Of a stretch of DNA of 64,000 bases, positions 29,380-41,300 are shown one piece after another (the first letter of the stretch is position 1; each line of letters starts with the position of its first letter). The stretch covers positions 26,990,986 through 27,054,985 of the forward strand of contig OY294049.1 in NCBI GenBank assembly GCA_958510825.1, written 5' to 3'. The translations under genes and the position numbers were made by a program. Source of the DNA: Brachypterus glaber. Its lineage: Eukaryota; Arthropoda; Insecta; Coleoptera; Kateretidae. The notes under the pieces are model-generated. The model had not been told where the DNA came from. It did not search any database and saw nothing but the letters and a program-made list of their open reading frames with translations.

Positions 29380-29609
29380 AGTTACATGACCGGAGTCATG
29401 CTACTCAGCAACTTATTGTTTATATAATAAAATGTATATTGTTTTGTCAGCATAGTTTACCTATGTAGCTTTTTACTTTCTTTCAATCAATCTGTAATTA
29501 TATTGTAAACTATTAACATTATTTAATAAATTTGTAATTCAATAAAATACTTCAAAAAACTTTAAAATAACTTTTTAAAAACTTCTTACGGCAAGGTTGC
29601 AACGTAATT
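29380..29609 (+). repeat. 5' LTR (230 bp)
   Basis: Starts agttacatgaccggagtcat and ends gcaacgtaatt. A TATA-like tatataa is at 29421-29427 and poly(A) signals aataaa are at 29525-29530 and 29541-29546. By eye it matches 37236-37465 base for base. Confidence 0.95.
29421..29427 (+). promoter_or_regulatory. Possible TATA box in the LTR
   Basis: tatataa lies 41 bp into the LTR, upstream of both poly(A) signals. The position suits a U3 promoter, but no start site can be proven from sequence. Confidence 0.4.
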
Positions 29610-29620
29610 GGCGCAGTCGG
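29609..29620 (+). promoter_or_regulatory. Primer binding site, tRNA-Ser type
   Basis: tggcgcagtcgg directly follows, and overlaps by one base, the 5' LTR. Its first 11 bases are the complement of the CCA end of insect tRNA-Ser (…CGACTGCGCCA). Confidence 0.85.
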
Positions 29621-29752
29621 CAGTTTTCACCAATCAATTTAGCATAAAATTGATTCGTTTCGACGATTTGTTGGTGATAGAACCTGGTAGTTTCCAAACA
29701 AGAGAAATTACAAAAAAAAAAAGTTTTCTTCGAGTGTGAGTGCACATCACAG

Positions 29753-29794: not shown

Positions 29795-30970
29795 ATGTCA
29801 TTTAGTGATTGCAGATTCAATTTTCAAAATACTTTAATCGATTCTGAGTCCAGTTCCGAGTCCGAAACAAACTCTGAACTAGAACTTACCATAATAGAAA
29901 CAAATAACCCCATTCCCGAAATAAATAATTTAAATTTAAACATGGCTAACGTTCTGAAAGCCGACTACTTGAACATGATCCCTGAATTTAGGGGCGAGTC
30001 AGAACTCCTTCCTAGATTCATCGATATATGTGAAAAATTAGTCAATAAATTTTATAACCTTAATGACCCGACGGACTTTCAGAATGAGTACCTAATGTCT
30101 AGCATTTTGGCTAAAATAAAGGGCGATGCCGCAACTAAAATATCCTCTTGCATTCTGAATAACTGGAATGACTTAAAATTAGCACTCCAGAATACATATA
30201 GCGATAAACGCGACGTTTTCAGCTTGCAATTGGAAATGACAGAGTTAAAGCAAGGGCTCAAACAGTCAGTTTTCGATTTTTACAATAGTATACTTATGCT
30301 ACTTAACCTTCAGATAGCATATTTAACGGTGCATCATGGTAATGCACAAGAGGTCGGAACTTTAACCGCATACTTAAGAAAATACGCCTTAAGGGTTTTA
30401 TTGAGGGGCCTCCGAGACCCAATAGGATCCTTAATGCGAACCAAAAATCCAGAAGATCTGAACTCTGCGTTAAATATGCTAACGAACGATTTTCAATTAG
30501 AAATAAATGACCAAATAATTAGAAATTCTTATAGCCAAAATCCTAGACAAAAGCCAAACTTTAATAATAATCGTAACTTTACACAAGGAAGGCAGCAATT
30601 GCCAAATATTAGGCAATTGCAACTAACAAATTACCCACAAAATTTCCAGCCAAGGCCAAATGGTTTTAATAATAATAACACAAATACAAACTTTCAAAAT
30701 CAGCCAGGGCCTAGCTCCAGAAATGATGTGTTTAGGCCAAACCCTAATGTAAGGTTACCGAGACCAACTCCAATGAGTGTTTCTACGCGAAACACTAATA
30801 TGTCCCATGCTAGGCAAAATTTTAATAATAGAAATAATTCAAATAATCAAATTAGAACGCCTAATTTTCAAATAGAAGAGGTTTTCAACTTGCATAATGC
30901 GCCGAAAGTAGAGTTTCCGGAGGAAAATTTAAATAAAAATCAAGATGACTCATCTTTTTTAGAGAATTGA
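29795..30970 (+). CDS. gag: Errantivirus Gag
   Basis: 391 codons from ATG 29795. The structural protein would package viral RNA and build the particle core. The N-terminal 45 residues are acidic and Ser-rich (SESSSESETNSELELT). A second in-frame ATG at 29942 begins MANVLKADYLNMIPEFRGES, so a shorter start is possible. Residues of about 60-240 are helix-prone and would be the capsid. The last 130 residues are dominated by Asn, with Pro, Arg and Gln, and show no CCHC zinc knuckle, as is normal for errantiviruses. The frame ends at TGA 30968-30970, just after the slippery heptamer. The start at 29795 is chosen because it is the first ATG after the splice donor. Confidence 0.92.
   Translation: MSFSDCRFNFQNTLIDSESSSESETNSELELTIIETNNPIPEINNLNLNMANVLKADYLNMIPEFRGESELLPRFIDICEKLVNKFYNLNDPTDFQNEYLMSSILAKIKGDAATKISSCILNNWNDLKLALQNTYSDKRDVFSLQLEMTELKQGLKQSVFDFYNSILMLLNLQIAYLTVHHGNAQEVGTLTAYLRKYALRVLLRGLRDPIGSLMRTKNPEDLNSALNMLTNDFQLEINDQIIRNSYSQNPRQKPNFNNNRNFTQGRQQLPNIRQLQLTNYPQNFQPRPNGFNNNNTNTNFQNQPGPSSRNDVFRPNPNVRLPRPTPMSVSTRNTNMSHARQNFNNRNNSNNQIRTPNFQIEEVFNLHNAPKVEFPEENLNKNQDDSSFLEN
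30955..30961 (+). promoter_or_regulatory. -1 ribosomal frameshift site (T TTT TTA)
   Basis: The heptamer tttttta is phased as T TTT TTA in the gag frame (codons TCT TTT TTA), the canonical X XXY YYZ form. Pol lies in the -1 frame and has no ATG until 30991, so this is the probable way Gag-Pol is made. A downstream pairing structure was not assessed. Confidence 0.85.
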
Positions 30971-33900
30971 GCCTCGGAAAAATAGATATCATGAGTTTAA
31001 CAAACGAAAAAAGTCAATTGTGCTATATAATTTACCCAGATTTAAATTTAAAAGTTTTATTAGATAGTGGTAGCACAAAGTCGTTTGTTAAACATGACAT
31101 CGCAAATAAATTTTTTTCTAGGAATATTATACATGACCCATTTTTAATATCTAGTGCACACGGTACTTCCTTGGAAAAGTATAGTACAAAGATCCCGTGT
31201 GGCAAATTGTTTAAAAATAACATTAATCTTAAATTTCATATGTTCAACTTTCATAAACAATTTGACTGTCTACTAGGCTTAGATAACCTAAAGAAATTAA
31301 ACGCGATTGTCGACCTGCATAATGATGTATTAATTACACCATCCCGCAGAATCAAAATTCACTACCTTGAGTTATCTAGTGGGGCCGACAGCATAGTCGT
31401 CCCTGCCAAGACAGAACAAATTATTAAAATAAATATTAAAAATGTTAAAAATGGTGACGTAATAATTCCTCACATGAAAGCTGGTGATCTAGAAATAATA
31501 GAAAGCGTAGCCAGTGTAAAAGATTTTTCTACTTATTGTAGTATTGTTAACCCTACAGATAGGGACATTTCTGCTAAAATAAACCCAATAACTGTGCAAA
31601 TGTTCGACGAATACGAACACCACACAGCTTCTAATTTTAATAATATTAATACATATTGCGATAACTCGCCAATTGATCTGTCTAAAATTAAAATAAATCA
31701 TATGAATGCAGAGGAAAAACAAGCAATTTTAAATCTTTTAAATGAGTACTCTGATATTTTTCATTCAGAAGGAAAACCCTTAACTTTTACGCATAAAATT
31801 AAACATAAAATAGTTACTAAAGACGAAATACCAGTGTACACAAAGTCCTATCGTTTTCCAAATGTCCATAAGCAAGAGGTAGATAAACAAATTAAAAAAA
31901 TGTTACAACAAAAAATCATAAGACCCTCTTATAGCCCGTGGAGTTCGCCAATTTGGGTGGTCCCCAAGAAAAGTGCCCCTTTTGCTGAACGCAAATGGCG
32001 CATAGTAGTTGACTATCGTAAATTAAATGAAAAAACTATTGATGACCGATACCCATTGCCGAACATTACGGACTTATTGGACAAGTTGGGACGTTGTTTA
32101 TACTTTAGTACAATGGATTTAGCCAGTGGTTATCACCAGCTGGAAATGGCTAGGGAGGATATTCAAAAAACTGCTTTCAGCACAGAAAATGGTCACTATG
32201 AATTCCTGCGCATGCCCTTTGGCCTTAAAACGGCCCCAGCCACATTCCAGAGGGTCATGGACAACCTGTTAAGGGGTATATTAAATAAAAAATGCTGCGT
32301 ATTTCTTGATGATATCATTTGTTTTAGTACAAGTTTACAAGAACATATAAACAATCTCAAAGAGATTTTTGATAGATTGCGATCTGCTAATCTTAAATTA
32401 CAAGTCGATAAATGCGAATTTTTGCAAAAAGAAGTAGCGTTTTTAGGTCATATAGTGACACCCCAGGGCGTAAAATCGAATCCTGAAAAAATTAAAGCTG
32501 TTCAAAACTATCCTATTCCTAAAACTACACGACAAATTAAGGCTTTTTTGGGACTATTGGGTTATTACCGCAAATTCATAAAAGATTTTGCGAAAATAAC
32601 TAAACCTATGACTATCTGTCTGAAAAAGAATCATAAAATTAATATTAAGGACCCCGAGTATGTAAAATGTTTTAACCATTGTAAAAATTTGTTGATTAAC
32701 CAACCCATACTGCAGTATCCAGATTTTAATCAACCCTTCATTCTAACTTGCGATTCTTCTAGTTTTGCTTTAGGTTCGGTGTTGTCACAAGGGAAAATAG
32801 GCTCTGATTTGCCAGTAGCTTACGCAAGTCGCACCCTTAACGAATCAGAATGTAATCTAAGTACTATCGAAAGGGAACTCCTAGCAATCGTTTGGGCTGT
32901 TAAATACTTTAGGCCCTACCTTTATGGCCGAAAATTTACAATAGTATCTGACCATAAACCCTTGCAGTGGTTGTTCTCCCTTAAAGAACCTAATTCCAAA
33001 TTATGTAGGTGGCGGTTGTACTTAGAAGAATATGATTATGAAATTATTTATAAAAAAGGTGTCCTTAATAGTAACGCAGATGCCTTGTCACGCATCGTAA
33101 TAAACCCAGAAACCAATATTCCCAAAAATCCCGACCAACTACAAAACCCCACAAACGAACCCCCCCAAATAAAAAAAATCGGTAACGCCACTGACTTAAC
33201 TTATGCCCAAGTTTTAAGTAATAATTACAATAAAAATACTATAAGTAATTCACCTCTACAAAATAACATAAAGTCACGTACGAGTTTCAAAGATAAGGAA
33301 GTATCAGATTACGATGACAATATATGCGAATCTATTCCCACGTACGAAATAAATTTAAACGAACTTTCAGACGCCGTTTATAAAAATGAAACTCTTCGTC
33401 AAATAATTTATAATAACCTTAATATAATTAATAATAATGTAAAAATAATCGACAATGATCTATTTAATTGTGACGAGAATATATCTCTTGCTCATTGCGT
33501 CTCCCAGTGTTTTAGCATGAAAAAAGGAATCGCCCGTAATTTCAGGGAAAAATTTAATTGCGTAAACACACTAAAAGCACAAAACAAACCTGTAGGTGAA
33601 GTTGCATATTTAAAACTTCCTACAAGAAATATTTATTATTTAATTACCAAAAAGATATTTAGGGACAAACCCACCTACACTACTATAATTTCCGCCTTGA
33701 TAAGCCTCAAAAGATTATGTTTAGAGCTACAAGATTTTACTGTAGCTATGCCAAAAATTGGATCCGGCCTAGATAACCTAAAATGGGATATCATACTTAA
33801 TTTAATTAAAATTATATTTCAAAACTCTAAAATTAAAATACTTATTTACAATATTGACCCACCCCAAAAAGTTGAAATTAACGTCACTAATCACGAAAAT

Positions 33901-35598
33901 AATAAAAGTGCTATTTCCAGCTTTATAGAAGAATTCTGCGAAGAGTTGACAAATGACGAACCTGACATTACAGACAATATTAATGAACCCTTATTAGATT
34001 ATATGCAAAAGTTTAACGACAGCTTTTCCGCGAATAAAGACTCAGACAATATGTCTATAATTGTTGAAACAGGGGACCTTGACGACTTAGAGCGGGAAGA
34101 AAATATTAAGCAAGCGGAACAACCTACAGAAACCGATCTTAATACAGTACACTCTAACGCGGAAAACCCAATTATTGGTGTCCCAATAGTAACTTGTCCA
34201 GTCAATTATGGCAAAAACCAAATTATTCTTTCACTAGTAGAATTTGCCCCTGCAACCCCCTCAATCGTTATCCTCTATAAATCAAAACAAAGAATGCTTG
34301 TTCAATTGTCAAAAAATAATTTTGAACAAGATGTAATAAAAATTATGAAAGAATATATCGCCCCAAAAATTAAGTATTATGTATTTTTCGAGGATCCAAT
34401 CTATGAACAATTTTGTGCTGTATTACAAACATATTTTAAAAATGGACAAATAAATTTAATTAGGTGTACAAAATACCTTACAGACGTAATAGGGGAGGTA
34501 GAAATAAAAGAAATTATAAAAAATTTTCACGAGGGAAAAACGAACCACCGGGGAATCGAAGAAACCGAAAAACGTATAAAAGAGTCGTACTATTTTCCGA
34601 ATCAACGTCGTGTGATTCAAACGTACATAAATAACTGTGAAATTTGCCAACTTACGAAATACGACAGAAACCCCCTAAAATTAAAATTTAACTTGACACC
34701 GACAGCGACTAGACCATTCCAAATTTTACACATGGACAGTATCACCCTAGAAAAATCTAAATTTCTTACAATAATTGACACTTTCTCAAAATATAGTCAA
34801 GCGTATAAACTAAGTGCTGCTTCAAGCATAGAAGTAGTAAATAATCTCATAAAATATTTTACGCACCATTCCATCCCCGAACAAATCGTATCGGATAATG
34901 GTGGTGAGTTTAATAGCGGTGTGTTAAAAGAGTTACTAGAACTCCATAAAATCAAAATCCACTTCATAAGCTCGCAACACCCCGATTCAAATTCTCCAGT
35001 AGAAAGATTTCACTCCACCCTAATCGAGCACATAAGGTTACTTAATAACCAAGATATTTTTAAGAGCGAGCCAATTGAGATAAAAATAAATTATGCAATA
35101 TTGGCCTATAATAATACAATACATAGCACTACAAAATTAAAACCTTCAGAAATAATCACAGGACACTTAGGCACAGATTCACCCTTTAACTTAGAATTGA
35201 ACAAACAATTAATGAATAACTATATATTTAACCATAAAGAAAAAACCAAAATTTTATATCAAAAAATAAACAAAGACGCACAAAAGACGAAAGAAAAAAT
35301 TATTAACAAATTAAATGAAAAACGTGAAGAAATTCCCAAAAGTATACCCGAAAAAGTATTCGTTAAAAATAAACAAAAACAGTCAAAAACCAAAAATAAA
35401 TTCAAAAAAGAAAAAATCAAAAATATAAACTGGAAATTAAAAACCGCAAAAATTGACCCAACCCATTTTAATACCATAGATAAAATCCACCTTTCGAATA
35501 TAAAACGCCCTAGAAAAAACAGTAACTCAAAAACTCAACAAGATTTATCTATTCCAGGTTGCTCACATGCGGACGAGCAGCGGACATCCGCAACATAA
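30962..35598 (+). CDS. pol: Errantivirus Pol with an inserted macrodomain-like region
   Basis: Open for about 1545 codons in the -1 frame; numbering below takes TTG 30967 as residue 1. Order of domains: aspartic protease (DSG at 33-35); reverse transcriptase of about 290-530 (FLDD at 446-449); RNase H of about 590-715 (D596, E635, D662 visible); a variable linker; a macrodomain-like region of about 824-965 (NDLF at 830-833, MKKGIA, YYLITKK to K896, IGSGLD to D936); a second unnamed region of about 1075-1185; integrase with an HH-CC zinc motif, then D1257, D1310 and E1346, where the last two have the usual 35-residue spacing. The C-terminus is very Lys-rich. All catalytic residues seen are intact. 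The protein would process Gag-Pol, copy RNA to DNA and integrate it. The last 40 bases overlap the open env frame. Confidence 0.95.
33436..33870 (+). other. Macrodomain-like segment of Pol (TARG1/OARD1 type)
   Basis: This part of Pol (residues of about 824-968) follows the pattern of the TARG1/OARD1 branch of macrodomains, which bind ADP-ribose and remove it from acidic side chains. Visible are NDLFNCDENISLAHCVSQ (the first strand and adenine-pocket region), a MKKGIA loop, RNIYYLITKK, KPTYTTI and MPKIGSGLDNLKW. TARG1 uses a Lys in the region matching K895-K896 and an Asp in the region matching D936, so both chemical groups seem to be kept. Assigned by eye; catalytic activity is an inference. 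Confidence 0.8.
35556..35557 (+). promoter_or_regulatory. Probable env splice acceptor
   Basis: An AG follows the pyrimidine-rich tttatctattcc at 35544-35555. Cutting here joins the exon ending at 29784 in phase with the env frame: two bases from exon 1 plus G35558 make a codon. Confidence 0.75.
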
Positions 35599-37226
35599 CA
35601 ACAAACCTTGGTATCCTTCCTATAAATTTGGGCCCTGCAAAATTGCAGCGCACAGACCATACTTTTGTCCACTACTACGAATTACAACCACTTTTCGACC
35701 AATTCGAAAAACTTAACTTAGAATATAATAGGCTAGATTTACTTAAGATTAACAAAACTTTTTATAGTAGAGAATTAGATAATTATAAGAAAATTATTAA
35801 CTATACACAGGGAAAAATTTATGAAAAAATTAATCATATTAATTTAGGGTATAATGAAAGTTTCACAAGAAACAAACGGGGACTTATTAATGGTTTTGGA
35901 ACCATAATTAAGGGCATTACAGGTAATTTAGATGCAAATGACGGTGAAAAAATATACAAAATTTTAACCGACATTCGCAAGAAAAACGATAACTTTCAGT
36001 CGCAATTAAATCAACAATACTCTATTAATCAAAAACTAATACAAAATTTTAATGATACTCTACAAGAAATACAGCATAATGAAAATATTTTAAAAAATAA
36101 AATTTTACAATTAAATAACTTCATGAACGAAAAAGTTCAGAGCCAAATTTTTATGTTGTTTGCACAAGACCTCCATAACCAAATTTTAATTATATATAAT
36201 ACAATTTTAAATATTCTAACGGATATCGAAAACTCGATAACATTTTGTAAGTTGAAAACAATGCACCCTAGCATAATAAAAACAGATGAATTATTCCTCG
36301 AAATTAGAAAAATCGCCGAACACTATAAAAACCAACTCCCAGTGGAGTTAAAATACGAAAACATTTTAGAACTTGAAAACCTTATTCAAATTAACTGTCA
36401 AATTGAGCCTACAAGAATAACATATTTTCTATCCCTCCCAATAAATTACGAAACAGATTTTGAATTATACCGCCTCACACCCATCCCTACCCTGTTCAAA
36501 TCAGAGTTTGTGACGATAATTCCAAAAACTAAATATTTATTAAAGTCAAAAGAAAATGGATTTGTACCATTGAATGACATTTGTAAAAAGGGCAAAAGGT
36601 TTCAATGCGCAAACTATTTGCAAGCAAGTCAGGATGTGACTTGTGAGAAGAATATTATCCTACAGGAAAACTCACACTCATGCTCGTATATAAAACTTGA
36701 TATTACCGAAAACCATATGGAAGTCATCCCGGAAATTAACCAGTTTCTCGGAGTATTTCCCAACGAAGAAAAACTCCACATTAAATGCAACGAAGAAAGC
36801 GAAACTAAGTCACTTCAAGGAATTTACCTCATAAAAGAAGAAAACTGCGAAATTTTTTTCAAACAAAACAAGCTATTTTTCGAAGAAAAATCATCTGGAA
36901 AGCCTGCCCTCGTAAATAATTTAAACCTTGCCATAGAGGACCGACAAATACAAAATTTAAAAATAAACCTAAAAACGCTGAAATTAAACGAAATTTCGGA
37001 AAATGCAGTTATACCAATGGAGAAAAATCAACAAGATATTTTCACCCCAAGCATCATGACCATTTCCCTCTACGTGGTAATCGTCATGGCGTTAACATAT
37101 TTTGGACTGAAATTCATCAGAAGCCGAATCCAGGAGAGAAAGAGAGAACCCATTCCACAGGAAGAGGAACTCCAACCACTCCCCCCCAGACAGAACTTCA
37201 ACCTCCCAGGGGATGCTTCATTTTGA
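35559..37226 (+). CDS. env: Errantivirus Env (membrane fusion protein)
   Basis: 555 open codons from 35559, with no ATG at the front; it is most likely expressed by splicing from 29753-29784, which would supply the start and a hydrophobic leader. Visible features are an RNKR furin-type site at residues 104-107, a following Gly-rich stretch that fits a fusion peptide (from G108), a long helical region of about 150-280 rich in Asn and Gln, a Cys-containing region at about 335-445, and one transmembrane segment at about 497-519 followed by a basic and acidic tail of about 36 residues. The layout is that of the insect errantivirus and baculovirus F-type Env. It would mediate entry between insect cells. 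No break is seen. Confidence 0.92.
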   Translation: MLTCGRAADIRNITTNLGILPINLGPAKLQRTDHTFVHYYELQPLFDQFEKLNLEYNRLDLLKINKTFYSRELDNYKKIINYTQGKIYEKINHINLGYNESFTRNKRGLINGFGTIIKGITGNLDANDGEKIYKILTDIRKKNDNFQSQLNQQYSINQKLIQNFNDTLQEIQHNENILKNKILQLNNFMNEKVQSQIFMLFAQDLHNQILIIYNTILNILTDIENSITFCKLKTMHPSIIKTDELFLEIRKIAEHYKNQLPVELKYENILELENLIQINCQIEPTRITYFLSLPINYETDFELYRLTPIPTLFKSEFVTIIPKTKYLLKSKENGFVPLNDICKKGKRFQCANYLQASQDVTCEKNIILQENSHSCSYIKLDITENHMEVIPEINQFLGVFPNEEKLHIKCNEESETKSLQGIYLIKEENCEIFFKQNKLFFEEKSSGKPALVNNLNLAIEDRQIQNLKINLKTLKLNEISENAVIPMEKNQQDIFTPSIMTISLYVVIVMALTYFGLKFIRSRIQERKREPIPQEEELQPLPPRQNFNLPGDASF

Positions 37227-37235: not shown

Positions 37236-37465
37236 AGTTACATGACCGGAGTCATGCTACTCAGCAACTTATTGTTTATATAATAAAATGTATATTGTTT
37301 TGTCAGCATAGTTTACCTATGTAGCTTTTTACTTTCTTTCAATCAATCTGTAATTATATTGTAAACTATTAACATTATTTAATAAATTTGTAATTCAATA
37401 AAATACTTCAAAAAACTTTAAAATAACTTTTTAAAAACTTCTTACGGCAAGGTTGCAACGTAATT
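37236..37465 (+). repeat. 3' LTR (230 bp)
   Basis: By eye identical to the 5' LTR and followed by the tata duplication at 37466-37469. Confidence 0.95.
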
Positions 37466-37489: not shown

Positions 37490-39432
37490 CAACCCATTTA
37501 GAGTCATAGCCTCCCGTGAAGGTTTCCGAGCCTTTTTTTTTACATAGAGCGGTGGCCAACCACATCTATAACCTTTTGGATTATAAAGGTATAAACTCCT
37601 TTGCTCTTTGCACTACCTTTGCCCACTCTTTTCTGTGCATGGCCTTCTCTTTCCAGTTTACAATACCTAGTTCTTCCAGATCCTTTTTTACCGTATCTAG
37701 CCATCTCTTTCTTGGTCTTCCCTTCCTTCGTTTTCCTTCCTCTTTACTATTAAGAATTTTTTTGGTGCATCTATTCTCTCCCAATCTTTGTACATGGCCT
37801 AGCCAGCTGATCCTCTTACTTTTTATTTGTGTCGACAAACAACTTTCCTTAAACAGTTCCCTTAGCTCGTCGTTTCTTCTTATCCTCCAGATTTCATTCT
37901 CCTGCACGGGTCCGTATATTCTCCTTAAAACTTTACGCTCCCACGTATCCCAAGATTCTTCTTCCTTTTTTGTTAAGCACCATGTTTTAGATGCATACAT
38001 CACAACTGGTCTGACCACTGTTTTATAAACCTTAATTTTAGAATTCAATGACAATGACTTGGATTTTAGGATGTTTTGTAAGGCGTAGTAACACTTGTTT
38101 CCTGCCATTAATTTTACGTTGACGTCTGTATTATCGTTTTTCGAAGTTATTTCTGCACCTAAGTATCTAAAACTGTCTACTTTTTCAAATATTTGATTAT
38201 CGATCATTACTCCTTCATTTCCACAATCGTTCCTTGTTGTCACCATATATTTCGTTTTTGCCACATTTACCCTTAGACCCATTCTTAATGCTGCTTCTTT
38301 AAAATATCTATATACTTCCACTAACCTGTCCTTTTTTCTACTTATTATATCCACATCATCGGCAAATGCTAAAATTTGGTATTGTCTGATAAATATATTT
38401 CCTCCCGATTGAATATGACTATTACCTACCACTTTTTCTAGCACCATATTAAACAGCGTAGTAGATATTGGATCTCCCTGTCTTAATCCTTCCTTGATCT
38501 TAAAAACCTCTGATACTTTATTCTGTATTCTTACCTTAGCTTGTGTTCTTTTTAAGCACATTTTAACCAGTTTAATTAGTTTTACTGGCACTTTTAGGTC
38601 TTTTAGTCCTTTATAGAGTTCTACTCTAAGTACTGAATCATAAGCCTGCTCGAAATCTACAAATAAATGATGTAAATCTGTGTCGCTTTCATAACATTTT
38701 TCTAGTGTTTGCCTAAGTACAAAAATTTGATCTATCGTTGACCTGTTTTTCCTAAAGCCACATTGATAGTCCCCAGTGCTCTGTTCCATGTAATTATTTA
38801 GTTTTCTTTCTAGCAACTTGCTAAAAATTTTGTACCCTACCTCTAACAACGAAATACCTCTGTAATTTTTACAAACCGTTTTGTCTCCCTTTTTATACAA
38901 TGGGCATATTATTGCGATATTCCATTCTTCTGGTAAATTTTCCTTCTCCCATATAATTTAAATCAATTCAAAAAGCTCTTTAATTACTTTATCTCCTCCA
39001 AATTTGATCATTTCTAATGTTATGTTGTCCTCGCCTGGTGCCTTATTATTCTTCATACCCTTTATAACAGACTGTAGCTCTTCAAGCGTTGGTGGCTCTG
39101 GCCCTAGTTCTTCGTCTTCCTCTAATTCCTGTCTTTCTATTCCATTTTCAACTACAACCTCGTTACTTACATGTGTGTTTAGTAGCCTCTCAAAGTATTC
39201 TTTCCATCTGTCGATAATTTCTTCCTCGTTTCCAATCAATTCGCCTTCCTTGTTGCAGTATATCGTTGTCCTTGGTTGGTATCCCTTTTTTTGAACCGCT
39301 ACTTCCTTATAAAATTGCCTTGTTAGTCTGTTTTCTTCCATCCTTTCCACTATCTGTTTCTCAAGGTTCCTTTTCTTTCTTCTAAAAACCCGTTTTGCTT
39401 CCCTTTTTATATTTTTATACTCGTCCTTTTTT
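37490..39432 (-). pseudogene. RTE-like LINE reverse transcriptase, 5' truncated
   Basis: Two minus-strand frames in line (38958-39350 and 37581-38900) are parts of one ORF2 separated by a stop TAA at 38958-38960 and a short readable link (WEKENLPEEWNIAIICPLYKK). RT landmarks are NNKAPGEDNITLEMIKFGG, NYRGISLLEVGYKI, GFRKNRSTIDQIF, VDFEQAYDSV, LRQGDPISTTLFN and AFADD at 38355-38369. The C-terminal part has RRIYGP, ISWLGHVQRLGE and KGRPRKRW. The look is of RTE/BovB-like endonuclease-RT proteins. The endonuclease is absent because the copy is truncated at 39432. Only the one stop was seen in the RT, so the copy is not very old. Confidence 0.8.
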
Positions 39433-39705: not shown

Positions 39706-41300
39706 CTATATGTGAGTGGTGCCGCTAAATGATACCTTAACGAAAAAAATACGATTTTTTGATTTTTGGGGTTTCATATGCATTGTATATTTCTACGTTA
39801 ATTAGTGAAAGTAAAACATTAATATCTCCAATAGTTTTTTTATTATGATTTTTTTTGTAAAGGCTTACAAAAGAAAAATTATAAAAAAAGTCGCCTGTAA
39901 TAAAAATTATTAAAATTATTAGATGAGCATAATAACATCTCTACTCAATATATTTTAACTTCAGAACACCTTTACTCAAAAAATATCTACACCATAATAT
40001 CTCTACTCAAGAATATACAGGGTGATCCTTTAAAAACGATCCAACCCAAATATCTCGCAAACTAAGCACAATACAAAAATTCTAAACAAGAGGTTAATTT
40101 GGGTCCTCAAGAGGGAAATTGAAGCATATGATTTTGGGGGCTGTAATTTTCACCCCCTAACGACCCAGCTAACCCAACTTTAGAATCTTGAATAGCAACC
40201 GCCATTTTGTGATGCGAATTTAAAAGAGCCTAAAAACGCCGCCATTTTGAATTTTTTTTAATTTTGACAAAAAATCGTAATCTGCGACCCTGAAAACCCC
40301 CTAATACCGATTTTTGTTCGAATCAGCTAGAAATCACAAAAGTCGTCCGCGATATTGGCTCCGCCATTTTATTTTTTTTATTTTGACCAAAAATTCTTAA
40401 TCTATGGCACAGAAAACCCCCAGATACCGATTTTGGTTCGAATTGGCAATAAATGACACAAATCATCCGCCATGTTGATTTTTTGTAATTATGACAAAAA
40501 ATTCGTAATCTATGACCCCGAAAACCCCCTGATACCGATTTTGGTTTGAATCGGCCAGAAATCACAAAAGTCGTCCGCCATATTGGCGGCGCCATTTAGA
40601 TTTTTTGAATTTTGACAAAAAATTCGTAATCTATGACCCCGAAAACCCCCTGATACCGATTTTGGTTCGAATCGGCCAGAAATTACAAAAGTCGTCCGCC
40701 ATATTGGCGCCGCCATTTTGATTTTTTATTTTGACCAAAAATTCGTAATCTACGACCCCGAAAACCCCCTCATACCGATTTTGGTTCGAATCGGCCAGAA
40801 ATTACAAAAGTCGTCCGCCATATTGGCGCCGCCATTTTGATTTTTTTAATTTTAACAAAAAATTCGTAATCTACGACCCCGAAAACCCCCTGATACCGAT
40901 TTTGGTTCAAATCGGCCAGAAATGACAAAAGTCGTCCGCCATATTGGCGCCGCTATTTTTTTTTATTTTGACCAAAAATTTGCAATCTTTGATCCCGAAA
41001 ACGCCCCGATGCCGATTTTGGACCAAAATGAACCATAAATAACTAAATTAGGTTTAAAATTTTTATTATAAATGATAAAAAATATTGTGTCGACCACGGG
41101 AGAACGGTGCATTTCTGCAAAGAGTGATTGCTATTTTCGTAATCAGGATGGTTAAATTAGTCTTAAAAAAAATCAACTGCAGCTATAAGTGATGTGTAGT
41201 AAACGAAATTACATCCTTAATTTGTCCCAACTTCAAACTCGTTTTTCTCGAAATCTACTTTTTATGCTTAAGGTACCTTTTCGCGGCACCACACACATAT
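39706..41300. mobile_element. TIR element enclosing a satellite array
   Basis: The ends atatgtgagtggtgccgc and gcggcaccacacacatat are inverted, and pairing goes on to taccttaa and ttaaggta (about 33 bp, some mismatches). Inside lie a tacagggtgatccttt word at 40017 and the 7-unit array at 40190-41040. No transposase frame is present. Flanking TA on both sides is compatible with, but does not prove, a TA duplication. Confidence 0.6.
40190..41040. repeat. Tandem array, about 107-121 bp unit, 7 copies
   Basis: The marker taccgattttggttcgaatc recurs near 40308, 40428, 40535, 40654, 40775, 40895 and, diverged, 41010. Each unit also has aaaagtcgtccgccatattg and gaccccgaaaaccccct. Frames on the minus strand (40323-40716) are repeat translations. 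Confidence 0.9.

What the first reader, a model, noticed from the sequence alone, without database searches (positions are those of the whole stretch)
33436..33870. A TARG1/OARD1-like macrodomain inside an intact errantivirus Pol
Between RNase H and integrase, Pol has about 140 residues with the ordered motifs of an ADP-ribose-handling macrodomain, including a Lys pair (895-896) and Asp (936) in the places of the catalytic residues of TARG1. Gypsy-type Pol normally lacks this. An ADP-ribosylhydrolase made by an endogenous retrovirus could counter antiviral ADP-ribosylation, as macrodomains of some RNA viruses do, or act on Gag-Pol itself. The ORF is intact and the provirus is young, so the domain is probably still selected. 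I do not know whether this has been described.
Basis: partly seen in the sequence, partly recalled or inferred. Interest (0 to 1): 0.9.

Follow-up and report, generated by a model that had tools for sequence, protein, structure and literature searches.

The report
ADP-ribose-removing enzyme inside insect retroviruses
An insect-type endogenous retrovirus carries, inside its polymerase protein, a copy of the cell enzyme TARG1 that strips ADP-ribose from proteins, DNA and RNA, and relatives carry the same enzyme in other places, which suggests that insects may fight such elements with ADP-ribosylation.

Summary
Window 33421-33861, between RNase H and integrase of Pol, encodes a TARG1/OARD1-class macrodomain (PDB phmmer E 3.4e-29; AlphaFold pLDDT 92.6; Foldseek to TARG1-ADP-ribose, TM 0.91, 1.0 A). 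The Lys84 and Asp125 equivalents are kept in 78 of 78 fetched loci, 46 distinct sequences, and the domain is under purifying selection between subfamilies. The same genome holds it at three positions: between RNase H and integrase (31 of 48 loci mapped), at the Pol C-terminus (9), and at the end of a Gag-like protein (8). Two env-bearing relatives lack it at both Pol positions examined. Among the 120 best Pol records listed by a protein search, 10 carry it. Domain and integrase trees disagree, so it behaves as an exchangeable accessory module. Ten literature searches brought up no description in Metaviridae; one review says that some fish retroviruses encode macro-domain ORFs. Best reading: a particle-borne ADP-ribosylhydrolase that undoes host ADP-ribosylation of element RNA, cDNA or proteins. 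Activity, packaging and target are inferred, not shown.

The parts
29380..29609 (+). 5' LTR (230 nt), starts AGTTACATG, ends CAACGTAATT
   Evidence: 230 of 230 identical to the 3' LTR; flanks are (TA)n, as errantiviruses prefer (recalled)
29609..29624 (+). probable primer-binding site, T+GGCGCAGTCGGCAG (17.6/297-like tRNA-Ser type, recalled)
29795..30970 (+). gag ORF, 391 aa
   Evidence: no Pfam hit; assigned by position
30967..35598 (+). pol ORF, 1543 aa from a TTG (first ATG 30991), -1 relative to gag
31045..31329 (+). protease (RVP_2)
   Evidence: E 1.6e-4
31960..32457 (+). reverse transcriptase
   Evidence: RVT_1 E 3.1e-38
32722..33033 (+). RNase H
   Evidence: RT_RNaseH E 3.6e-37
33421..33861 (+). 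TARG1/OARD1-class macrodomain
33649..33651 (+). catalytic Lys (TARG1 K84 equivalent), AAA
33772..33774 (+). catalytic Asp (TARG1 D125 equivalent), GAT
33862..34491 (+). linker between macrodomain and integrase; its counterpart is present in macro-less relatives L080 and L086
34501..34662 (+). integrase zinc-binding domain
   Evidence: E 2.2e-14
34708..34983 (+). integrase core
   Evidence: rve E 4.5e-10
35559..37226 (+). env-position ORF, 555 aa from a TTG; no in-frame ATG up to 36000
   Evidence: related ORFs lie downstream of integrase in relatives; no credible Pfam match (only a sub-cut-off hit to an unrelated family)
37236..37465 (+). 3' LTR

Best explanation
An errantivirus-type endogenous retrovirus encodes a complete TARG1-class ADP-ribosylhydrolase as an extra domain of Pol. 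SHOWN by sequence and predicted fold: the domain, its catalytic Lys-Asp pair, its conservation, and its presence in the same genome at three positions (RNase H-macro-integrase; integrase-macro; Gag-like-macro). INFERRED: because in every locus mapped the enzyme rides on Pol or a Gag-like protein, it would be packaged and stay with the reverse-transcribing particle. INFERRED: there it removes ADP-ribose that host transferases put on element RNA ends, on single-stranded cDNA, or on Gag and Pol. TARG1 is known to act on acidic residues, on RNA and DNA ends, and on thymidine-linked ADP-ribose in single-stranded DNA. Elements gain, lose and swap the module as the host pressure changes.
For: Identity. 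Catalytic residues: Lys 78 of 78 loci, Asp 78 of 78, loop Gly 77 of 78; 46 distinct sequences. Purifying selection: dN/dS of the domain 0.24 (window vs L031, dS 0.11), 0.12 (L042 vs L044, dS 0.26), and 0.08-0.14 in five pairs with dS 1.7-3.1. Positions: 31, 9 and 8 of 48 loci. Macro-less kin L080 and L086. Other hosts: Rhynchophorus ferrugineus and Harmonia axyridis, both beetles. On the integrase tree the macro-bearing rows as one clade are rejected, p-AU 8.6e-64; the two C-terminal lineages share one macrodomain clade (100/99) but one integrase clade for them is rejected, p-AU 0.0005. Substrates of TARG1: PMC6582358 (abstract), PMC8501950 and PMC7050489 (passages).
Against: No activity, packaging or host transferase was shown. 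Most relatives live without the domain (110 of 120 listed), so it is not needed for the cycle as such. The 78 loci were picked as best matches to the domain, and 29 of them have the window's exact domain sequence, so decayed copies are under-represented in the residue counts. Copies with stops exist. Among near-identical copies dN/dS is 0.15 to 1.05, from few changes, and in one pair there are only non-synonymous changes. The role could be on the element's own proteins or on chromatin rather than defence.
Confidence: 0.65

Rival explanations
1. The enzyme works on the element's own proteins: it reverses ADP-ribosylation of Gag, RNase H or integrase, or acts with PARP1 at the integration site, as part of the cycle and not against a defence.
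For: It is fused to Pol or a Gag-like protein in the 48 loci mapped (in L051 and L053 the Gag-like frame is broken ahead of it); TARG1 interacts with PARP1 and acts on acidic residues (PMC7050489 passages).
Against: The patchy distribution among close relatives does not suit a step needed by every element; a Gag-like family with no pol seen nearby also keeps it.
Confidence: 0.17
2. It is a reader: it binds ADP-ribose and tethers the integration complex to PARylated chromatin, without needing catalysis.
For: Macrodomains are readers as well as erasers (PMC7050489 passages); two of the positions flank integrase.
Against: Catalytic Lys and Asp are kept in 78 of 78 loci while only 19 of 147 columns are invariant among 46 distinct sequences. 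The Gag position is away from integrase.
Confidence: 0.11
3. A captured passenger without function in the element.
For: Presence is optional; few-change pairs do not show constraint by themselves.
Against: Low dN/dS in the seven pairs of clearly diverged copies with measurable dS, kept catalytic pair, repeated presence at different positions.
Confidence: 0.03
4. It hydrolyses free O-acetyl-ADP-ribose or other small esters, a metabolic role.
For: OARD1 has this activity (PMC7050489 passages).
Against: No evident reason for a retroelement to carry it in its particle proteins (inference).
Confidence: 0.04

Closest known systems
Human TARG1 / OARD1 / C6orf130 (ALC1-like macrodomain hydrolase)
   Same: 42% identity over the aligned columns, same fold (TM 0.91, 1.0 A), K84, G123 and D125 equivalents
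   Different: A domain of a retroelement polyprotein instead of a free-standing protein; the window has Ser for Cys before the Gly-Leu-Asp
DarG macrodomain (DarTG toxin-antitoxin)
   Same: Ranks next after TARG1 (TM 0.82-0.83); cleans ADP-ribose off thymidine in single-stranded DNA (PMC8501950 passages)
   Different: 19-24% identity; bacterial antitoxin
MacroD-type macrodomains of alphaviruses and coronaviruses
   Same: Viral ADP-ribosylhydrolases that oppose host ADP-ribosylation (PMC7050489 passages)
   Different: Other macrodomain class: alphavirus domains 14-15% identity, TM 0.74-0.76
Macro-domain ORFs of fish epsilon-like endogenous retroviruses
   Same: A retrovirus that carries a macro domain (one sentence in PMC4977317, citing Basta et al. 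2009)
   Different: Described there as additional ORFs in Retroviridae; I saw nothing of Basta et al., so class and position are unknown to me
Kadipiro virus VP8 and insect virga-, negev- and flavi-like virus proteins
   Same: Among the best viral structural matches; Kadipiro VP8 46% identity, TM 0.91
   Different: RNA viruses, not reverse-transcribing; none of the 50 listed matches is labelled a metavirus (many rows have no name)
Errantiviruses (Metaviridae) such as gypsy, ZAM, 17.6
   Same: gag-pol-env order, Pol order PR-RT-RNase H-IN, TA-rich target
   Different: The classical ones lack this domain (recalled, not tested by name); 110 of the 120 Pol records listed lack it

Membership tests
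TARG1/OARD1 (ALC1-like hydrolase class) | Significant sequence homology to TARG1 above other macrodomains | tested here: met
   OARD1 E 3e-29 and 6e-46; next macrodomain (5m3i, DarG, listed as RNase III inhibitor) E 0.0011 and 1e-6
TARG1/OARD1 (ALC1-like hydrolase class) | Macrodomain fold closest to TARG1 | tested here: met
   the first 8 PDB matches are all C6orf130/TARG1
TARG1/OARD1 (ALC1-like hydrolase class) | Catalytic Lys84 and Asp125 | tested here: met
   78 of 78 loci for each
TARG1/OARD1 (ALC1-like hydrolase class) | ADP-ribosylhydrolase activity | not testable with these tools
   needs an enzyme assay
TARG1/OARD1 (ALC1-like hydrolase class) | Free-standing minimal macrodomain protein | tested here: not met
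   here a domain of Pol or of a Gag-like protein; whether protease frees it is unknown
MacroD-type viral macrodomain | Closest to MacroD / nsP3 macrodomains | tested here: not met
   alphavirus macrodomains rank below TARG1 and DarG, 14-15% identity
Errantivirus (Metaviridae) | LTRs, gag, pol in the order PR-RT-RNH-IN, and a third ORF after pol | tested here: met
Errantivirus (Metaviridae) | Insertion in TA-rich target, LTR ends AGTTA...TAATT-like (criterion recalled) | tested here: met
Errantivirus (Metaviridae) | Env of the baculovirus F-protein kind | tested here: inconclusive
   no match to such a family at E <= 0.01
Errantivirus (Metaviridae) | Insect host | tested here: inconclusive

The most novel reading that the evidence does not exclude
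Insects have an undescribed ADP-ribosylation-based defence that marks the RNA or the single-stranded cDNA of reverse-transcribing elements inside or near the particle, and errantiviruses answer it with a particle-borne TARG1 module which they exchange between lineages and place in Gag, in mid-Pol or at the Pol end.
Probability: 0.3. Interest if true: 0.92.

Novelty: new variant of a known kind. Interest (0 to 1): 0.76.

Why it matters
Macrodomains are a known tool of RNA viruses against host ADP-ribosylation, typically of the MacroD class. A TARG1-class enzyme that retroelements carry at different places, keep intact and swap points to a conflict over ADP-ribose in invertebrate germ lines that has hardly been looked for. 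A 2020 review speculates that RNA ADP-ribosylation could mark transposon-derived or viral RNA (PMC7050489 passage); these elements make that testable with a small enzyme domain.

Tried and rejected
Chance or low-complexity resemblance: rejected. Assembly or contamination artefact: rejected, since 47 near-identical copies and many diverged subfamilies lie across the genome. A broadly conserved errantivirus domain that others had merely missed: rejected, 110 of 120 listed Pol records lack it and have only 175-298 aa between RNase H and the zinc domain. A single gain followed by vertical descent with the integrase: the clade is rejected, but one gain with many losses and recombination is not excluded. 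The host's own TARG1 gene: not identified; a search with human OARD1 scored 150 of 536 candidates, all listed at 115 bits or more, and an intron-split gene would rank lower. Origin of the domain from an insect gene: open, because no insect cellular TARG1 is known to be in the trees. Structure of the weak second macrodomain in L042/L062: AlphaFold pLDDT 45.5, inconclusive, so no fold search was run. Viral contigs: no relative found with the single-sequence query.

Full report
WHAT IS THERE. The window holds a provirus with two LTRs (29380-29609 and 37236-37465) that are identical over 230 of 230 bases, a gag ORF, a pol ORF in the -1 frame and an env-position ORF. Pfam finds protease, reverse transcriptase and RNase H in the first half of Pol and the integrase zinc and core domains in the second. 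The LTR ends, the TA-rich target and the primer-binding site look like those of errantiviruses of the 17.6/297 kind; that comparison is from recall. Between RNase H (ends 33033) and the integrase zinc domain (starts 34501) lie nearly 1.5 kb; 33421-33861 is the macrodomain.

IS IT A TARG1 MACRODOMAIN. A phmmer search of PDB sequences with the translated piece 33286-34020 gives human OARD1/TARG1 at E 3.4e-29, aligned without a gap over 140 residues. A profile of 17 copies and subfamilies (A1) gives 6e-46. Pfam's Macro model is a weaker tool for this class: E 0.0043 and below cut-off for the window, 9 of 17 members at E <= 0.01 and 3.8e-8 at best. AlphaFold on A1 gives pLDDT 92.6 and pTM 0.89. 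Foldseek ranks eight C6orf130/TARG1 entries first (best E 6.6e-18, TM 0.91, 1.0 A, 43% identity), then DarG; the first alphavirus macrodomain is at rank 21. In a search of 5.8 billion proteins with A1 (1300 hits at E <= 1e-5), most of those among the 120 listed that bear a name are animal OARD1 proteins. In the library of viral models the best match is Kadipiro virus VP8 (46% identity), with thrips-associated RNA viruses among the next; none of the 50 listed is labelled a metavirus, and many rows have no name.

CATALYTIC SITE AND SELECTION. Pol 895 and 936 fall on K84 and D125 of TARG1 (numbering recalled; K84 is called catalytic in PMC8501950; the review PMC7050489 prints residue 125 as Glu, while the PDB sequence has Asp). 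Over 78 fetched loci (46 distinct domain sequences) the Lys is kept in 78, the Asp in 78, the Gly of the loop in 77. These loci were fetched as good matches to the domain, and 29 have the window's exact domain sequence, so this is not a random sample. Nei-Gojobori dN/dS of the domain was computed for 16 pairs. Seven pairs of clearly diverged copies with measurable dS give 0.24 (window vs L031, dS 0.11), 0.12 (L042 vs L044, dS 0.26), 0.10 (window vs L032), 0.11 (L034 vs L039), 0.10 (L042 vs L062), 0.14 (L045 vs L062) and 0.08 (L064 vs L049); the last five have dS of 1.7 to 3.1 and are rough. Three pairs had saturated dS and were not used. Six near-identical pairs give 0.15, 0.25, 0.48, 0.61 and 1.05, and one with no synonymous change, each from a handful of changes, as expected after insertion. 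In window vs L031 the reverse transcriptase, RNase H and integrase zinc and core parts are lower (0.04-0.13) than the macrodomain; in L064 vs L049 and L045 vs L062 the integrase zinc and core parts are higher, so its constraint is of the same order as that of the core enzymes.

HOW WIDE IN THIS GENOME. The genome (648 Mb, unnamed) gave 152 matches to the piece, a lower bound because only the best candidates are scored; 47 of those listed are at least 99% identical and others form subfamilies at about 91, 72, 57, 52, 48 and 46%. From I took 48 further loci (L031-L078) and mapped the Pol pieces by tblastn. In 31 the domain follows RNase H; integrase is seen downstream in 29 of them (not in L048 and L050). 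In 9 it follows the integrase C-terminal part as the last domain of Pol, with an env-like ORF after it (L049, L059, L064-066, L071, L072, L074, L075); those stretches hold no second domain. In 8 (L051-L058, 93.7-96.5% alike in DNA in the pairs compared) it ends a frame of up to 516 residues whose first part is Gag-like: one frame in six, broken ahead of the domain in L051 and L053. The Gag-like call rests on a weak PNMA match below cut-off (E 0.0013) and on my reading of the sequence. In L052 no frame over 73 residues follows in the next 1.3 kb; the copies stay alike to the ends of the stretches fetched, so the element reaches further and a pol beyond is not excluded.

MACRO-LESS RELATIVES. 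I sampled 900 nt after RNase H at 11 further loci of other frame lengths. Four of them (L082, L083, L084, L089) turned out to be one family, so 8 families were seen; one (L081) has the domain and 10 loci in 7 families do not. Two of these, L080 and L086, are env-bearing relatives (integrase zinc domain 51 and 58%, env 32 and 41% identical to the window's) with no macrodomain after the integrase either (best profile score there 5.2 bits); the part ahead of RNase H was not examined in them. Aligned with L045, L080 runs from the end of RNase H straight into the shared linker where L045 has the domain. So close relatives do without it, by loss or by never having had it.

OTHER HOSTS. A search with the window's own domain gave 4 proteins, among them a Pol of the weevil Rhynchophorus ferrugineus. 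A search with an RNase H-to-integrase profile of seven lineages gave 1949 proteins; of the 120 best that were listed and tested, 10 carry the domain: 8 between RNase H and integrase (one from the ladybird Harmonia axyridis, P0210), one at the C-terminus (P0147), and one about 475 residues ahead of RNase H, hence ahead of the reverse transcriptase by inference (P0145). The other 110 have 175-298 residues between RNase H and the zinc domain. Since the profile held the domain, the list favours carriers, and 10 of 120 is not a frequency; records outside about 530-1,680 residues could not be found.

TREES. The integrase tree has 68 rows: 28 with the domain and 40 without (L080, L086 and about one in three of the macro-less records); quick method. 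The domain's presence needs at least 10 changes on it, and holding the 28 as one clade is rejected (p-AU 8.6e-64). P0210 has a long branch there; P0005, L038, L048, L050, L070 and L081 were not in it. On a careful tree of the domain (56 rows) the element-borne domains and the cellular OARD1 rows that I chose fall on opposite sides of one supported branch (96/93), except one ciliate sequence on the element side. Of the cellular rows some are named OARD1, others (such as P0050, P0053, P0119) are unnamed and were called cellular by my judgement; many unnamed rows were left out. A larger quick tree with them (143 rows) put most Pol-borne domains in one group (SH-aLRT 94, 25 rows), had some unnamed rows next to that group, and placed L070, P0005 and the Gag-borne domain elsewhere with weak support. 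No insect cellular TARG1 is known to be in either tree, so the source is open, and the Gag-borne form may be a separate capture. The two C-terminal lineages share a domain clade (100/99), yet one integrase clade for them is rejected (p-AU 0.0005). The simplest reading is that the module has been exchanged by recombination among elements and has moved position.

MECHANISM. Shown by sequence: a complete, constrained TARG1-class domain joined to Pol or Gag-like proteins. Known for TARG1: it frees ADP-ribose from Asp and Glu, from phosphorylated RNA and DNA ends (PMC6582358 abstract; PMC7050489 passages) and from thymidine in single-stranded DNA, the last described as a unique and non-redundant activity (PMC8501950 passages). 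Inferred: reverse transcription produces such RNA ends and single-stranded cDNA beside RNase H and integrase, and an element that carries the enzyme on Gag would have the same protection in its particle. I therefore rate clean-up of host ADP-ribosylation in the particle as most likely, nucleic acid adducts being the boldest version. No activity was measured.

IS IT KNOWN. Ten searches of 5.39 million open full-text papers were made. Searches found no paper. Searches (5 papers; 3,222, 25 listed; 2; 2) gave listings in which no title or abstract start describes a macrodomain in Metaviridae; I did not open most of them. Searches looked for errantivirus and TARG1 papers. Of PMC13172572 and PMC12992720, on insect retroviruses, I saw term look-ups only, with no 'macro' or 'ADP-ribos'; of PMC6338049 on accessory domains the first of four parts and a look-up; of PMC2774666 and PMC11377751 look-ups. 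A review on fish retroviruses says that epsilon-like elements sometimes hold ORFs for macro domain proteins (PMC4977317, passages); that lowers novelty to a new variant. Subscription papers and most preprints were not searchable.

Noticed in passing
P0233, P0237, P0239, P0242 (protein records): Four Pol records related to this element carry a Ulp1-type (SUMO) protease domain after the integrase (PF02902, E 2e-31 to 4e-37), a second modification-removing enzyme in the same group.
   Followed up: partly
L042:2119-2520, L062:2111-2512, P0201 residues 926-1042: In some lineages the linker after the active macrodomain looks like a second, degenerate macrodomain (hhalign probability 95, one-on-one E 4e-8; 27 bits in P0201); AlphaFold gave only pLDDT 45.5.
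   Followed up: partly
L051-L058: A family of closely alike copies with a frame of up to 516 aa: Gag-like part plus C-terminal TARG1 domain, no pol seen in the fetched flanks.
   Followed up: partly
P0002: A 626-aa metagenome protein joins a TARG1-like domain to a GDSL lipase domain, perhaps ORF1 of another retroelement.
   Followed up: no
P0145: A 1542-aa record with the macrodomain well ahead of RNase H, a fourth position.
   Followed up: no
window 37584-38900 (-): A reverse-transcriptase ORF of another element lies just beyond the 3' LTR on the other strand (RVT_1 E 2.6e-34).
   Followed up: no
window 40237-41021: Tandem array of a 121-bp unit, 6.7 copies.
   Followed up: no
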